Positions 1 through 43,663 of a stretch of 43,663 nucleotides of DNA are shown here, piece by piece (position 1 is the first letter of the stretch; each line of letters begins with the position of its first letter). The stretch comes from a virus. The notes under the pieces were generated by a model, which worked only from the letters and a program-made list of their open reading frames with translations, did no database searches and was not told where the DNA came from. Position numbers and translations under genes: made by a program. Where the stretch lies: the IMG/VR virus record IMGVR_UViG_3300045944_000376, positions 1-43,663 of that record. One strand, 5' to 3'.

Positions 1-207
1 CACTTCTGGAAGGTGTGCTACGAAGTGGAATTTGGGCGGCCGGCGCCATTGCCGTACATTATCGAGCATGATCCGGTGGCGCATGGCCCAGGTCTCCTCC
101 AGGTGCCGCACTGGCCCGACATCCCGGATAAAAGCGCGGTGCTGCGGGAGGAAGAAACCGAGGCCGAAGACGCCCCGGAGGAGCTGACCAGCCCGGAGGA
201 GGGATGA
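1..207 (+). CDS. tas: Tas-like protein, C-terminal 68 residues (continuation from the right end)
   Basis: The frame is open from base 1 (HFWKVCYEVEFG...) with no start of its own that would make a sensible gene; the first ATG is internal at 13. It follows in frame from the right-hand end, which stops at ...VKMFLEHF. Both ends carry CACTTC, so the joint may be a plain abutment (HFHF) or a 6-bp terminal duplication (HF). The segment holds an aromatic, Pro-rich stretch (GRPAPLPYIIEHD) and a very acidic tail (EEETEAEDAPEE). The stop overlaps the ATG of the next gene (ATGA), so the two should be co-translated. Confidence 0.72.
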   Translation, partial: HFWKVCYEVEFGRPAPLPYIIEHDPVAHGPGLLQVPHWPDIPDKSAVLREEETEAEDAPEELTSPEEG

Positions 208-644
208 CGATGAACTATGAGGAAGAGATGAATCGTCAGTGGCATGATGGATATGAACACTATTATAGCCGTAATCAGCATCACAAAATGCGCCAACATC
301 CTCAATGTCCCTTTATCTTACGCAATGGACACCAATGCAAAAACACCATCTCCTATCGTCAGAAGACGTGTTACACGCATCGCCATATGCTCAGTATCCC
401 GTTTTTGAATGAGGAAGCGTTACACAGGGAGATACAAAGGCAATGGGACATCTTACCGCTGGAACAGCAGCACTTTGTGTGTGAGCTTTATAAGATGATG
501 CATCTGTTTGACCCATGGCATTCGGAGCATACGAGCTTCTTGCTCGAAATCCTGCTGGCCCATTGGAACGACGAGCATTTTCGAAAGCGGATCTTCTCCA
601 GGCCTTCTGTAGCGACAGATCCCGAGAAGCGCGGCCCCTGGTAA
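204..644 (+). CDS. Small Cys/His (zinc-finger-like) protein between the Tas-like gene and the guide array
   Basis: 146 residues, start ATG overlapping the stop of the Tas-like gene. A candidate metal site is Cys35, Cys45, Cys56, His59 (C-x9-C-x10-C-x2-H) in a context rich in basic and aromatic residues (GHQCKN, TCYTHR). The rest is helical, with an HWNDEHFRKR segment near the C terminus. I do not recognise a named family. Base composition is visibly more AT-rich than its neighbours, which suggests separate acquisition. The last codons (PEKRGPW) run through the first conserved motif of the array and stop at 642-644, so gene and array overlap. Its position inside the locus makes it a candidate accessory protein of the system. 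That is inference from location only. Confidence 0.65.
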   Translation: MTMNYEEEMNRQWHDGYEHYYSRNQHHKMRQHPQCPFILRNGHQCKNTISYRQKTCYTHRHMLSIPFLNEEALHREIQRQWDILPLEQQHFVCELYKMMHLFDPWHSEHTSFLLEILLAHWNDEHFRKRIFSRPSVATDPEKRGPW

Positions 645-898
645 AGAGCCACCCAATATGTGCGAGCGCGGCCCTTGAAGATGAGCCACCCACAAGAAAA
701 GAGCGCGGCCCAGCAAGACGAGACGCCCTTAAAGCAGGCGCGCGGCCCTAAGGTTTGAGACCCCCATTAATGGAGAGCGCGGCCCAACAGTAAGAGACAC
801 CCCAGCCATTCGAGCGCGGCCTTTTGGATTGCGGCACCCCTACCGAGCGCGCGCGGCCCACCTTGGCGAGACACCCAAGAAGTAAGAGCGCCGGTCGC
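627..898 (+). repeat. TIGR-like guide array: seven 37-bp units, each with two short repeats and two short spacers, plus a degenerate end
   Basis: GCGCGGCCC occurs at 629, 666, 703, 740, 777, 814 (last base T) and 851, and a degenerate GCGCCGGTC lies at 888: eight positions exactly 37 bp apart. Seventeen bases into each unit a second 9-mer recurs, consensus GAGACACCC, at 646, 683, 720, 757, 794, 831 and 868. The motif GCGCGGCCC is usually preceded by GA. Between the motifs lie variable stretches of 8 nt (ctggtaaa, ttgaagat, agcaagac, taaggttt, aacagtaa, tttggatt, accttggc) and about 9 nt (aatatgtgc, acaagaaaa, ttaaagcag, attaatgga, cagccattc, ctaccgagc, aagaagtaa). Repeats and spacers this short with two alternating motifs do not fit CRISPR. 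They fit the edge-repeat/spacer A/loop-repeat/spacer B organisation of TIGR arrays. Transcription is probably rightward from the upstream genes. Confidence 0.82.
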
Positions 899-907
899 TG
901 ACAGAAC

Positions 908-944
908 CACCGCCCCGGCACCAGGGGGGGCACCAGGGGCGGTG
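908..944 (+). other. GC-rich stem-loop just after the guide array
   Basis: CACCGCCCC at 908-916 pairs perfectly with GGGGCGGTG at 936-944 around a 19-nt loop that itself repeats GCACCAGGGG. No T-tract follows. It begins in the last degenerate unit of the array, so it could protect or end the array transcript. That role is inference. Confidence 0.5.
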
Positions 945-1025
945 AACCACTACCGACAAGCTGGAGATGGGCTACTACTCCCAGCCTCCAGCGCCCAGTC
1001 TAGCACCCAGGCCAGCACCCGACAA

Positions 1026-1117
1026 GCCTGCCCCACGCCAGGGCGTCATGCGCGGCTAAGCCTCCTGGCGCACGGACACCATGCCGCCACAAGCGGCGTG
1101 GTGGGGGCAGGCCTTTT
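1026..1117 (+). terminator. Branched GC-rich RNA fold ending in TTTT between convergent transcripts
   Basis: GCCTGCCCC (1026-1034) can pair with GGGGCAGGC (1104-1112), enclosing two hairpins: CGCCAGG (1036-1042) with CCTGGCG (1064-1070), and CACCATGCCGC (1077-1087) with GCGGCGTGGTG (1093-1103, one G-U pair, loop CACAA). TTTT follows at 1114-1117. The element lies between the array and the 3' end of the minus-strand tailspike gene, whose stop is at 1116-1118. It could terminate the rightward transcript. The T-tract is short, so a structured RNA is the alternative. Confidence 0.45.
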
Positions 1118-2912: not shown

Positions 2913-4208
2913 TCAGGGCGCCTTCGAGAGAGGAGCGAACAAGTTCATTTGTGCCGTATTCTTGTCGTGCTGCTCAAGGCAATGGGGAGAAGCCCACAGT
3001 CGTTCCCGGTGCTGCTGGGATGTGCCATCGATATTGCCGTATCCGCCACGGAGGAATCCTGGGGCATACCATTCATGCACCGTCCAGCCTGCAGCCTCGA
3101 GGGCTGTGTGTTCGGTATCATAGCCAGCCAGCACGATGCGTGTCTGCGGCTGCTGTGCTGCGTGCAGGCACCAATCGCGTACCCGCTGCTGCATATTGTC
3201 CTGGTCGATGCGGTAGAGATCTCTGTCGCGTTCCGTGCAACTGTAGGGCGGATCGAGAAACACGCCGCAGTACCCGTCTCCTTGCCGGACTGACAAGGTC
3301 AGGCGTGCGCCATCGGTGCAGATACGCTGCCAGTCGCCAGCCACGATGCGGACATGCCGGAGCCTGGCGGCAAGCCAGCGAAACCAGCGGAGGAGTTCTG
3401 GCATCGTCACCGGATGAAATTCTGCTTCCTCGCTGACGCCAGGCTCCCTGAGTCCGGCATGGTTGACGCCCATGCCATTATCGCTCAGGTGCGGCAGGTC
3501 GCGCGAGACGCCAGGATCCATGAGCTGTGGCCGGTTGACGCCCATGCCATTATCGCTCAGGTGCGGCCGGTTGCGCGAGACGCCAGGCTCCCTGAGCTGT
3601 GGCCGGTTGATGCCCCTGCCATTATCGCTCAGTTGCGGCAGGTTGCGCCAGATGCCAGGCTCCCGGAGCTGTGGCCGGTTGGCGCCATTGCCATTAGTGA
3701 TCAGGGGCGGCCGGTTGCGCGAGATGCCAGGCTGGCCGGTTTTGACGATGCGCCCGGTGACTGGGTCGGCAGTCCATGGGCCTCTGCCGTGGAACGGTCC
3801 GATCTGGCAGCATACGCCATAGAGCCACCAGCCCGCCATCTGCGGATCACACCAGGTTGCACTCCCAGCAAGACGTTCGTGGACAGCTTCCGTATACCAC
3901 TTGAGCACGGCTATCTGCCGTGCCTGTTTGTCTAGCTCTGAGACTGGCCACGACGCAGCCTCTGCCGTAGCCTCTGGATGCCATTGTATAGCCCGCCAGG
4001 CATTGACCACAAACCCATCCAGATCATTGATCGTTTCACTGTAGTACGTTCTATTGCACGGATGCGGCCGCTCCAGGAGCACTGCCATCGAGCCAGCGAA
4101 GGGCTCGACGTAATGCATGACGTCCCCCAGCAGGCTCCAGACCAGTGGTGCTGCCTGGGATTTTCCGCCATACCAGGGGAACGGCGCTTTGTTCAGCCGT
4201 TCCAGCAT
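2913..4208 (-). CDS. dam: D12-class DNA adenine methyltransferase with a 24-residue repeat insert
   Basis: 431 residues. The order of motifs is that of Dam/D12 N6-adenine methyltransferases: PFPWYGGK near residue 9 and EPFAGSMAV at 35-43 (AdoMet binding), then the catalytic DPPY at 319-322. Between the target-recognition region and DPPY, residues 161-256 hold four 24-residue repeats of the type GVSRNRPHLSDNGMGVNRPQLREP, then a fifth start (GVSEE). The C terminus (GFLRGGYGNID, RERLWAS) resumes the family fold. It may protect phage DNA from host restriction or mark it for packaging. Placement between the tailspike and the secreted BNR protein, outside the replication genes, is unusual. The repeat insert is probably a disordered or solenoid linker of unknown role. 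Confidence 0.85.
   Translation of the reverse strand: MLERLNKAPFPWYGGKSQAAPLVWSLLGDVMHYVEPFAGSMAVLLERPHPCNRTYYSETINDLDGFVVNAWRAIQWHPEATAEAASWPVSELDKQARQIAVLKWYTEAVHERLAGSATWCDPQMAGWWLYGVCCQIGPFHGRGPWTADPVTGRIVKTGQPGISRNRPPLITNGNGANRPQLREPGIWRNLPQLSDNGRGINRPQLREPGVSRNRPHLSDNGMGVNRPQLMDPGVSRDLPHLSDNGMGVNHAGLREPGVSEEAEFHPVTMPELLRWFRWLAARLRHVRIVAGDWQRICTDGARLTLSVRQGDGYCGVFLDPPYSCTERDRDLYRIDQDNMQQRVRDWCLHAAQQPQTRIVLAGYDTEHTALEAAGWTVHEWYAPGFLRGGYGNIDGTSQQHRERLWASPHCLEQHDKNTAQMNLFAPLSKAP
3441..3728 (-). repeat. Four in-frame 72-bp tandem repeats inside the Dam gene
   Basis: The sequence ggttgacgcc starts at 3461 and again at 3533, 72 bp apart, and the pattern continues. Translated, it is four copies of a 24-residue unit rich in Asn, Arg, Pro and Gly. 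Copies differ at several positions, so this is an aged rather than a fresh duplication. Copy number could vary between related phages by recombination. Confidence 0.85.
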
Positions 4209-7741: not shown

Positions 7742-10123
7742 CTAGGCTCCCTCTGCCGCGGCGGCCCGTGACACGCCATTGCGGCCCACTTGCACCACTG
7801 TGGCTTCCAGCGTCGTCTGGGGCGCGCCAAAATCGCTCGTCTGGTCTGCCACCGTGTACACATACGTGTCTTCCAGTTGATACTGTCCGGCCTCGGGCAC
7901 GTCGATCGCGCGCGCCAGCGTGGTCCGGGTCGCATCCGTATAGATGAGCACACGATAGGTGAGCAGATCCGGGTCTGGCGTCGCCTGGCTGCCGTCGACC
8001 CACGCCCCGGGAAACCGTGCGCGTCCGCGCCAGGCAAACAGCCAGTCCCCGTTCGTCTGGAGCGTCAGGTGCAGCGTCGCCACCGTCCACGGCGTCAGGT
8101 TCTCCATCGGCGCGGCATGCGTTTGTGCGTTCGCATCGGCCAGGCTCAAGCCTCGCGTCACCGTCTTGTAGGCGCGCAGGACCGCGCGCCAGGCCAGGGG
8201 CATCTCCAGCCGATACACGCTCTGGTCGAGCACCGTAAACGGTTCGTCCGCCATATGCGTCCCTGTCGCCCATTCCGTGCCACGGCGCCCGCGCCAGAAA
8301 TGTCGCAGCTCGTACGTGTCCGGGGCAACCAGGACGGCCTCGCGGAACTGGACCAGCTCGCTCCCCAGCAGCGCCAGATTGCCCCCGAACTGGAAGGCCT
8401 CCGGGGTGATCGAGGTGAGGCTGCCATGGTGCAGCACGACGGTCACCACCGAGGTCGTATCGGTCCAGTGCGCCGGGGCATCGGGCAAGGCGGTCGTGGC
8501 ATCGCCCCAGATCCCTTCGAGCGTCCCCGTGTGGCGATAGGTATACGCCTGGCCGCTCGCATCGGCATCATACAGCGATCCCCCAGGCCAGCCTTGCGTC
8601 GCCGGAGGACTGGGATAGGTATAGACCCAGTGCAGGCGTGGCGCGGTATCCTCGGCGGTGAGCGCTGGCAGCGCCAGAAAGCGCGCCAGCGTCGGATCCA
8701 GGAAGTCCAGCTCCTGCCCGGTCTCTGGTCCCGTCCCGGGCGCCGCCCCGGGGACCCACATGACGGCCGCGCTATCGCCCCGTCCCTGGCATTCGAGCAG
8801 GCCCGGTCGGCCATAGGAGAGCTGGCCGAGATTGATCGTATAGAGCGCCTCGCGGCTCTCCACGGTAATACGGTCGCCGGGCTCCAGAAAGGCCCAGGGA
8901 CGCCCCACCGTGAACTGGTAGGAGGTACGTTCGATCCAGATTTGATCGAGGGTTTGTTGCGCCAGGTCTTTGGCCTCCCCGTCATCCAGCGCGAGCACGG
9001 TCGAGACCGCGCGCGGTTGTTCGACTGCAGTGGGGAGGAAGCCGATCATGGCCTGTTGCGTGCTCTGCTGATAGCCGCGATTGGGAGCCACGTAATTGAC
9101 GCTGAATTGCGTCGGCAGCGCCCGCTCCCGGGCACGGGGAATCTGCAATCCGGTCGTCTCCTGGTCTTCTTGATCCGTGGCATCCAGGGCGCCTTCAGGA
9201 ATGTGCGCCACCTCGTCCCCCCGCTCCTGGCTGCGCCCCACAATCTGGAGGCCGGATTCAAACAGATAAAAGCGATACGCGAAGGTGAGCGGTTCGATAA
9301 TAGTGCGTACCGCCTGGACATTGACCGTCGCCATGGCGATGGGGTTGGTCGGCACGGCGCTCCACTCCAACTGCTCTTCCGGCAAGCCCACGGCGGTACA
9401 GAGTTGGGTGAGCACCTGCGGTAAGGTGGGGAGCGGATCCTGGTAGACCTCGAAGTTGAAATTGGGGACACGTGGAAACGCCCCCATATCGTAATTCGTC
9501 ATGACGAGATAGCACAGGTACGGATAGCCCGGCGTATTGGCGAGGCCCAACGCCGCGCTGATCGTGGCATCGGGATTCTGATCCCCTTCGCCGCGGTGCA
9601 ATTGCCAGTTCTCTGGCCAGTCGAGCGCCTGATCCCGGTCATAGATGACGGTATTATCGGCCCAGACGGTTTGAATGCCGAGGATAAAGCCACTGATCAA
9701 GGTATCGCACAGCGCAATCGCCAGATCTACGCTATACGTTTTGGTGATACTCACCGCCGCGGGACCACCCCCTTTGCCGCCTTCGGCTTCCTCGCGGTGC
9801 TCGTGCTCGATTTTGGGGCCCATCCAGATAATGTTCCCGGCCAGGCGATACCGGCCCCAGATCTGGGGGATCGGTTGCGCGTAGGACGAGGTTTGGAGGA
9901 CCAGATCGGCAATGGAGTCTTGCTCATTGATTTGATCCGGCGCGGTGGCATAATCGTAAATGCCGCCGGCGATCCCGCCCACCGTCGCGCCGAGCGCCAG
10001 ATAGGTGCCGATTTGCGCCACCGTGAACGGTACGGAGGCGCCATAACTCACCACCGCCAGCACCACGGCCGCGACCGCCAACCCTACGAGCGTGCCGATT
10101 TGCCCTGCAGACATATTGCTCAT
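7742..10123 (-). CDS. Tail-tip / baseplate hub protein (J-like, Phage-tail_3 type)
   Basis: 793 residues from ATG at 10123. This start overlaps the NlpC/P60 stop (ATGA) and gives MSNMSAGQIG; the frame is open further up, but only in the shadow of that gene. Residues 5-40 are hydrophobic (GTLVGLAVAAVVLAVVSYGAS). SYAQPIPQIWGRYRLAGNIIW, just downstream, is the hallmark of the tail-tip family that includes gene transfer agent host-specificity proteins and lambda J relatives. Large beta-rich domains follow. It forms the distal tail hub that carries the fibre and opens the tail tube. The order DUF2460, DUF2163, NlpC/P60, tip protein is the conserved GTA/lambda-like order. Confidence 0.85.
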   Translation of the reverse strand: MSNMSAGQIGTLVGLAVAAVVLAVVSYGASVPFTVAQIGTYLALGATVGGIAGGIYDYATAPDQINEQDSIADLVLQTSSYAQPIPQIWGRYRLAGNIIWMGPKIEHEHREEAEGGKGGGPAAVSITKTYSVDLAIALCDTLISGFILGIQTVWADNTVIYDRDQALDWPENWQLHRGEGDQNPDATISAALGLANTPGYPYLCYLVMTNYDMGAFPRVPNFNFEVYQDPLPTLPQVLTQLCTAVGLPEEQLEWSAVPTNPIAMATVNVQAVRTIIEPLTFAYRFYLFESGLQIVGRSQERGDEVAHIPEGALDATDQEDQETTGLQIPRARERALPTQFSVNYVAPNRGYQQSTQQAMIGFLPTAVEQPRAVSTVLALDDGEAKDLAQQTLDQIWIERTSYQFTVGRPWAFLEPGDRITVESREALYTINLGQLSYGRPGLLECQGRGDSAAVMWVPGAAPGTGPETGQELDFLDPTLARFLALPALTAEDTAPRLHWVYTYPSPPATQGWPGGSLYDADASGQAYTYRHTGTLEGIWGDATTALPDAPAHWTDTTSVVTVVLHHGSLTSITPEAFQFGGNLALLGSELVQFREAVLVAPDTYELRHFWRGRRGTEWATGTHMADEPFTVLDQSVYRLEMPLAWRAVLRAYKTVTRGLSLADANAQTHAAPMENLTPWTVATLHLTLQTNGDWLFAWRGRARFPGAWVDGSQATPDPDLLTYRVLIYTDATRTTLARAIDVPEAGQYQLEDTYVYTVADQTSDFGAPQTTLEATVVQVGRNGVSRAAAAEGA

Positions 10124-42523: not shown

Positions 42524-42950
42524 CCCGATTCACCGCCTGCTCGGCCCCGCGTGGGACTGGACCGTCTCCCGTGTCGCCTGCGGCACACGGACAGCCACGC
42601 ATGCCACGTGGGACACGACGCTGGTGACCTGTCCACAGTGTCGGCAGGGACAGGCACCCGCGTACCTGTTTTCCAACGAGAAAGCCCTGGCTGACGCGGT
42701 GCAGCAACTCGCACGCTCGCAGGACTGGCTGTACTACCACACGCATGACAGTCGACACAGTCCGGCAGGCTATCCCGACCTGACCCTGGTCAAGGGTACC
42801 AGGCTCGTGTTCGCCGAACTGAAGATGCCCGGCCAGAGGCCCACCGTGGCGCAACGACACTGGCTCGACGCCTTGCGGCAGGTTGCGACCGTGGAGGTGT
42901 CCCTGTGGACGCCGGAGGACTGGCCCACCATCGAGGAGACGTTGCAGTGA
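42513..42950 (+). CDS. VRR-NUC family nuclease
   Basis: 145 residues from ATG at 42513, with AAGGAG upstream. A Cys pair near the N terminus (VTCPQCRQG) precedes the VRR-NUC core: NEKALADAVQQLARSQDWLYYHTHDSRHSPAGYPDLTLVKGTRLVFAELKMPGQRPTVAQRHWLDALRQV. The core carries the GxPDL and ELK catalytic motifs. Such enzymes are PD-(D/E)XK nucleases that cut branched DNA or act at junctions in phage replication. The stop overlaps the GTG of the Tas-like gene, so the two are translationally coupled. This raises the question whether it could serve the guide system as a nuclease in trans. Confidence 0.88.
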   Translation: MSPDPIHRLLGPAWDWTVSRVACGTRTATHATWDTTLVTCPQCRQGQAPAYLFSNEKALADAVQQLARSQDWLYYHTHDSRHSPAGYPDLTLVKGTRLVFAELKMPGQRPTVAQRHWLDALRQVATVEVSLWTPEDWPTIEETLQ

Positions 42951-43663
42951 CCGACAGCACCATGACTCTGCTCACCGGCCGCTTGAACCGCAGTATGCTG
43001 GCGCACGCTGCCGACCTGTCGCGCGAGGAAATCCGCGGCCTGGTCGATAGCTACTACCAGGCGCAGGAGTTGCGCAAGGCCGGCGCCAATCAGCGTCGCG
43101 CCGTCGCCCAGGGACGCGATGCCAACCCGCTACTCGATTATGTCGTGGATCACCTGGAGCACCTGGAGAAAGATATCCAGCGCATCATGGACGTGGCCAC
43201 CGATGCCCACATCCCGACCCGCTGGGCAAAAAGTCACGTCGGCATTGGCCCGACGCTGGCTGCCGGCCTCTGGGCGCATATTGACGTGCGGATTGCGAAG
43301 ACGGGTTCGGCGGTCTGGCGCTTCGCCGGTCTGGACCCCACGGTGAAGTGGGAGAAAGGCCAGCGGCGTCCCTGGAACGCAAAACTCAAAACTTTATCAT
43401 GGAAAGTCGGTGAGAGCTGGAAGAAGTTCTCCAATCACCCTCATGCCTCGCTTTATTCGCAACTCTACCGCGAGCGCAAGGCGCTGGAAGTGGCGCGCAG
43501 TGAGTCGGGGATGCAAGCCGAGACCGCCGCGGCACTCCTGGCGACGAAACGCTGGAAGGCGGGGACCGTGGCCGCCAAAGCCTACGCCGAGGGCAAGCTG
43601 CCGGCGGGACAGCTTGACGCCCGCGCCAGACGGTATGCGGTCAAGATGTTCTTAGAGCACTTC
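42947..43663 (+). CDS. tas: Tas-like (IS110/Nop-related) RNA-guide-binding protein, N-terminal 239 residues; continues at base 1
   Basis: The frame runs off the window end on a codon boundary and appears to continue at bases 1-207, giving 307 residues. The GTG start at 42947 overlaps the stop of the VRR-NUC gene, which suggests translational coupling. Residues 60-95 are helical (possible coiled coil). Residues 97-110 form a helix-hairpin-helix-like segment (HVGIGPTLAAGLWA), followed by AGLDP at 127-131 and a basic NAKLKTLSWK segment at 144-153. This order is that of the C-terminal half of IS110-family transposases, which is structurally related to Nop domains of box C/D RNPs. The N-terminal RuvC-like DEDD domain of IS110 is absent, and no HNH or RuvC motif is visible. 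With the 37-bp two-spacer array about 400 bp downstream of its stop, the best reading is a nuclease-free Tas protein of a TIGR-Tas system. The alternative is an orphan IS110-derived protein. Confidence 0.8.
   Translation, partial: MTDSTMTLLTGRLNRSMLAHAADLSREEIRGLVDSYYQAQELRKAGANQRRAVAQGRDANPLLDYVVDHLEHLEKDIQRIMDVATDAHIPTRWAKSHVGIGPTLAAGLWAHIDVRIAKTGSAVWRFAGLDPTVKWEKGQRRPWNAKLKTLSWKVGESWKKFSNHPHASLYSQLYRERKALEVARSESGMQAETAAALLATKRWKAGTVAAKAYAEGKLPAGQLDARARRYAVKMFLEHF

What the first reader, a model, noticed from the sequence alone, without database searches (positions are those of the whole stretch)
627..898. Phage-encoded TIGR-like array: 37-bp units with two short repeats and two short spacers
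Seven units at strictly 37-bp steps carry GCGCGGCCC and, 17 bases on, GAGACACCC-like motifs. The DNA between them is different in every unit (8 nt and about 9 nt). Ordinary tandem repeats would not keep exact spacing while two windows change freely. The layout and unit length fit guide-RNA arrays of the TIGR-Tas family as I recall it (two repeats, spacers A and B, about 36-nt guides). The array lies directly downstream of an IS110/Nop-related protein gene, which is the expected partner. A system in a temperate phage with its own spacers would be a rare, informative example: targets could be rival phages, plasmids or the host.
Basis: partly seen in the sequence, partly recalled or inferred. Interest (0 to 1): 0.97.

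Follow-up and report, generated by a model that had tools for sequence, protein, structure and literature searches.

The report
Phage-borne TIGR-TasA guide-RNA locus
A temperate phage carries a seven-unit array of paired short guides next to a gene for the matching RNA-guided DNA-binding protein (TasA), a recently described kind of system already known from phages, whose targets and purpose are still unknown.

Summary
At 627-891 there are seven units at exact 37-bp steps: edge repeat GAGCGCGGCCC, 8-nt spacer, loop repeat GAGACACCC, 9-nt spacer. The period-37 signal is far outside shuffles, and columns split into two conserved and two free blocks. The partner gene is present but cut by the record's ends: 42947-43663 runs in frame into 7-207 (6-bp overlap CACTTC), giving a 305-aa solo Nop-domain protein. 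Its family profile matches solved TasR (E=2.5e-23) and TasH (1.8e-12); its predicted fold finds TasH/TasR first in the PDB. Nearly all close viral relatives have dual-repeat arrays of period 36-37 near the gene. This is therefore a TIGR-TasA locus, a new member of a published family (Faure 2025, PMC12045711) already known from phages. Added here: the cassette occupies an exchangeable accessory site (a related phage has a DNA methylase there); 246 spacer pairs from five such phages show no self-targets above shuffled pairs; spacers are AT-richer than their genomes (36% against 63% GC here). No natural target was found.

The parts
42947..43663 (+). tasA, N-terminal 239 codons (GTG start overlaps the TGA stop of the upstream gene); Nop core
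   Evidence: profile match to TasR 9mty E=2.5e-23
7..207 (+). tasA, C-terminal part (bases 1-6 repeat the last 6 bases of the record); stop TGA 205-207
   Evidence: in frame with the right end; aligns without a gap across the join with the C-termini of relatives (17/37 identical to L015)
204..644 (+). 146-aa ORF with Cys/His zinc-finger-like spacing, ATG overlapping the tasA stop, 47% GC; role unknown, no relative found
627..891 (+). TIGR dual-repeat array, 7 units of 37 bp
627..637 (+). first edge repeat (AAGCGCGGCCC, 5' box D degenerate); lies inside the 3' end of ORF 204-644
638..645 (+). spacer A of unit 1 (8 nt); spacers A of units 2-7 follow at +37 steps
646..654 (+). loop repeat of unit 1 (GAGCCACCC; consensus GAGACACCC); the others follow at +37 steps
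655..663 (+). spacer B of unit 1 (9 nt); spacers B of units 2-7 follow at +37 steps
886..891 (+). 3'-truncated last edge repeat (GAGCGC)
908..944 (+). G+C-rich hairpin after the array (-25 kcal/mol), without a T run; near the start of the region 907-1090 shared with related phage G004

Best explanation
This is a TIGR-TasA locus of a temperate phage. The array is transcribed from the + strand, probably in the early operon with tasA (inferred), and cut in the edge repeats into about 37-nt tigRNAs (inferred from the family). Each tigRNA would be held by a TasA dimer through the pseudosymmetric GAG...CCC boxes of the loop and edge repeats. Spacer A would pair with one strand of a target and spacer B with the other strand right beside it (shown in the literature for TasR and TasH, inferred here). 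With no nuclease domain, TasA would bind and bend the target DNA and block its transcription or replication without cutting it (inferred). The targets are most likely foreign to the phage (host or rival elements), because its spacers do not match its own genome.
For: Array anatomy and significance. tasA read over the record ends. Profile match to TasR and TasH chains; tblastn hit to Salicola phage CGphi29, the phage from which SpTasH was described. Predicted fold with pLDDT 88, top PDB hits TasH and TasR. The protein covers only the Nop part of TasR/TasH, so no nuclease. 22 viral relatives, nearly all with dual-repeat arrays at period 36/37, and further relatives in bacterial and archaeal genomes. 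Shared edge/loop boxes, truncated terminal edges and 8-9-nt spacers agree with the published description. No self-targets among 246 pairs in five phages. A D12 methylase takes the place of the cassette in a related phage.
Against: No expression, processing or binding data. No natural target found: exact matches in viral contigs form no more independent clusters than for a mismatched-pair control. The hairpin after the array has no T run, so the terminator is uncertain. The join of the two record ends rests on a 6-bp overlap, the reading frame and the alignment. The edge is 11 nt and the boxes GAG/CCC rather than the UG/CCA of TasR.
Confidence: 0.93

Rival explanations
1. The array regulates the phage's own genes: TasA with its tigRNAs binds the phage genome as a guided repressor, or aids its integrase.
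For: TasA lacks a nuclease; an integrase gene is present; the discoverers of the family suggest aid to integrases as one possibility.
Against: Composite targets (spacer A + reverse complement of B, gap 0-2) in the own genome are no closer than shuffled pairs, here and in four larger sets of arrays. Spacers are much more AT-rich than the genome.
Confidence: 0.12
2. The array is a relict: a formerly active TIGR cassette carried passively.
For: Only seven units; the repeats of unit 6 are degenerate.
Against: tasA is an open, full-length frame that keeps the conserved core of the family. Six of the seven units match the strict edge+loop pattern exactly.
Confidence: 0.08
3. An ordinary tandem repeat (structural DNA or protein-coding) with no guide function.
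For: Tandem Repeats Finder does call part of it.
Against: Two sharply bounded free blocks per unit at constant length; a Tas gene beside it; the same architecture in relatives with other repeats and spacers. A period of 37 shifts the reading frame at every unit, so it is not a protein repeat.
Confidence: 0.02
4. An IS110-type insertion element with a bridge RNA.
For: Weak Pfam hit to Transposase_20 (E=0.007, below cut-off); PHROG 4285 is named transposase.
Against: No DEDD transposase domain; the closest solved proteins are TasR/TasH, ahead of IS621; a multi-unit array instead of one bridge RNA.
Confidence: 0.01

Closest known systems
TIGR-TasA with dual-repeat array (Faure et al. 2025, PMC12045711)
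   Same: Solo Nop-domain protein beside an array of alternating edge and loop repeats and two short spacers; truncated terminal edges; shared boxes in edge and loop; found in phages.
   Different: Edge repeat 11 nt and G+C-rich, so period 37 instead of 36; boxes GAG/CCC; a 146-aa ORF lies between tasA and array. Among the relatives here, L025 and L026 also have period 37.
TIGR-TasH of Salicola phage CGphi29
   Same: Phage-encoded, homologous Nop part (27% identity), dual-spacer array.
   Different: TasH has an N-terminal HNH nuclease; the window's protein has none.
TIGR-TasR (PDB 9mty)
   Same: Nop fold; profile E=2.5e-23, fold hit E=2.7e-5.
   Different: TasR has an N-terminal RuvC nuclease; boxes UG/CCA.
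IS110/IS621 bridge-RNA recombinases
   Same: Distant Nop-related fold.
   Different: DEDD transposase domain and a single bridge RNA, both absent here.

Membership tests
TIGR-Tas | Nop-domain Tas protein encoded next to the array | tested here: met
   the gene spans the record ends
TIGR-Tas | Two alternating 8-12-nt repeats separated by about 9-nt spacers (up to 12), most often 5-15 units | tested here: met
   11-nt and 9-nt repeats, 8-nt and 9-nt spacers, 7 units (definition)
[quoted passage not shown]
   GAG at the start and CCC at the end of both repeats
[quoted passage not shown]
   627-637 and 886-891
TIGR-Tas | Rho-independent terminator after the array | tested here: inconclusive
   Strong hairpin 908-944 but no T run; the terminator scan finds none on this strand
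TIGR-Tas | Processing into about 36-nt tigRNAs bound by Tas | not testable with these tools
   needs RNA data
TIGR-Tas | Tandem-spacer DNA targeting on both strands | not testable with these tools
   target searches gave chance-level matches
TasA subtype | No HNH or RuvC nuclease domain | tested here: met
   305 aa; the conserved core starts near residue 12; no nuclease hit in Pfam or PHROGs
CRISPR array | A single 25-36-nt repeat with spacers of similar size | tested here: not met
   two short repeats, spacers of 8-9 nt
IS110 element | N-terminal DEDD transposase domain with Nop-like C-terminal part | tested here: not met
   only a sub-threshold Transposase_20 hit; no DEDD domain

The most novel reading that the evidence does not exclude
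TasA arrays of phages carry guides drawn from AT-rich regulatory DNA of the host or of rival elements, so that the nuclease-free TasA acts as a phage-borne, PAM-free, multiplexed transcription silencer. The AT shift of spacers in 26 of 28 arrays would be the footprint of promoter targeting.
Probability: 0.15. Interest if true: 0.8.

Novelty: new member of a known kind. Interest (0 to 1): 0.42.

Why it matters
The biological role and the natural targets of TIGR-TasA are open questions, stated as such by its discoverers. This example has three useful features: an apparently complete temperate phage genome, a place at the end of the early operon, and close structural-gene relatives that lack the cassette. 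The comparison indicates that tas plus array is an exchangeable accessory module, and that spacers in five such phages show no self-targets and are AT-shifted. Both observations narrow what TasA can be for.

Tried and rejected
Targets in the own genome, in four related phage records and in the tas loci: no better than mismatched pairs. Exact dual-spacer scans of viral contigs for three units: 34, 24 and 20 hits in 5, 10 and 15 independent clusters, against 21 hits in 10 clusters for a mismatched-pair control; the largest cluster is one conserved stretch in low-GC viruses. Same repeat motif in other viral contigs: none. Relatives of ORF 204-644: none. VRR-NUC gene as a conserved trans-acting nuclease partner of tasA: only 3 of 18 relatives have one and it is no conserved neighbour, so rejected. 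Second period-36 repeat at 3425-3738: lies inside ORF 2913-4208(-) and lacks two free blocks, so not an array. First genome scan with the single protein found nothing. The host could not be identified: no tRNA genes and terminase relatives scattered over many hosts below 40% identity. No Rfam family in 1-1200.

Full report
WHAT IS THERE. The window is a whole IMG/VR virus record of 43,663 bases. At 627-891 seven units follow each other at exactly 37 bp. Column by column, one block (GAGCGCGGCCC, columns 36-37 and 1-9) and a second block (GAG.CaCCC, columns 18-26) are conserved, and the two blocks between them (8 and 9 nt) are close to random. The period-37 identity (0.59 over 222 bp) lies far above shuffled sequence (mean 0.35, maximum 0.396) and is the strongest periodicity in the window. 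The first edge repeat is degenerate at its 5' end and the last is cut after GAGCGC. A strong hairpin (908-944, -25 kcal/mol) follows, but without a T run.

THE PARTNER GENE. In the linear record the array seems to have no tas gene: only 626 bases lie before it. But the right end of the record encodes an open frame from 42947 that is homologous to IS110-like/Tas proteins, and the left end opens with 68 further codons in frame. The two ends share 6 bp (CACTTC). Collapsing this overlap gives one 305-aa protein that aligns without a gap through the join with its relatives. Related record G005 also starts at a permuted position: window 9023-9115 maps to both of its ends. So the record is most likely a circular map cut inside tasA. 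From the sequence, the gene overlaps its upstream neighbour (a VRR-NUC protein) by GTGA and its downstream neighbour (a 146-aa ORF) by ATGA, and the array begins within the 3' end of that ORF; tasA, the ORF and the array are contiguous on the + strand.

IDENTITY OF THE PROTEIN. A profile of 17 sequences, the window's and 16 relatives, finds TasR 9mty (E=2.5e-23), TasH (1.8e-12), and more weakly IS621 and ISCro4. AlphaFold2 gives a mean pLDDT of 88 for the 239 residues at the right end, and Foldseek ranks TasH and TasR first (E 1.7e-6 to 4.5e-5), IS621 next. The only match in the phage collection is Salicola phage CGphi29, the source of SpTasH in the TIGR paper (PMC12045711). There is no nuclease domain, so the protein is TasA-like.

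RELATIVES. One scan gave 22 viral loci (34-51% identity), nearly all with dual-repeat arrays of period 36 or 37 near the gene. A scan of bacterial and archaeal genomes with the alignment gave 18 more loci, some of them distant. Close relatives (L015, L017, L018; L019, L028) share some units with spacers A and B kept together, while other units differ or have one spacer changed. So arrays turn over and are not structural repeats of fixed sequence.

GENOMIC PLACE. Phages that share the structural genes (about 80-94% DNA identity to G005) showed no tas match (an empty answer in fragments is weak evidence, but G005 covers nearly 39 kb). In G004 the DNA homologous to window 907-1090 follows directly after a D12-class adenine methylase gene. 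Homology thus resumes right where the array ends, and a different accessory gene takes the place of tasA + ORF + array. This is what an exchangeable accessory site at the end of the early operon would look like.

TARGETS. The published geometry (spacer A on one strand, adjacent spacer B on the other, gap 0-2) implies, by my derivation from the stated 8-nt 3' overhangs, a target reading A followed by the reverse complement of B. In the own genome and in related phages the best matches are no closer than for mismatched pairs, also in two alternative geometries. In five genomes with 246 spacer pairs, self-matches follow the shuffled control. Exact scans of viral contigs for three units gave no more independent clusters than a mismatched-pair control. 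The spacers of the window are 36% G+C against 63% for the genome (binomial p=3e-9), and variable columns are AT-shifted in 26 of 28 loci (Wilcoxon p=8e-6; relatives are not independent samples). Whether this reflects targets, an RNA-structure constraint or a biased origin is open.

MECHANISM. Shown here: the array, its boxes, a complete Tas frame, homology and fold. Inferred from the family: processing to about 37-nt tigRNA, dimeric binding, dual-strand pairing. Inferred from the absence of a nuclease: binding, bending and blocking rather than cutting. Inferred from the absence of self-targets: foreign targets.

VERDICT. This is a member of a published, recently discovered family already known from phages, so novelty is 'new member', with modest added interest from the module exchange, the lack of self-targets and the AT shift. 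Whether this very record is in the authors' table S1 could not be checked.

Noticed in passing
L028 5947-8079: A tasA gene of a viral contig is interrupted in frame by an intein-like insert (Hint domain E=1e-6 and LAGLIDADG_3 E=6.5e-10) between KRL and CWLLGES of the Nop core. No intein in a Tas protein was mentioned in the parts of the TIGR paper read here.
   Followed up: partly
window 3425-3738: A 36-bp tandem repeat inside ORF 2913-4208(-), whose start matches a D12 adenine methylase (E=1.9e-9, residues 12-81 only); the methylase may carry a repeat insertion or be truncated.
   Followed up: partly
L021 675-8714 (contig record G020) and record G023: Single phage contigs carry very many TIGR units in several arrays around tasA: 76 in G020 (66 on one strand, 10 on the other) and 84 in G023.
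   Followed up: partly
28 loci with dual-repeat arrays: window and L007-L043: Variable (spacer) columns are AT-shifted against flanking DNA in 26 of 28 loci (mean 49% versus 59% G+C).
   Followed up: partly
window 204-644: 146-aa ORF with Cys/His spacing like a small zinc finger, much lower G+C (47%) than the phage (63%), no relative found; overlaps the tasA stop and contains the first edge repeat.
   Followed up: partly
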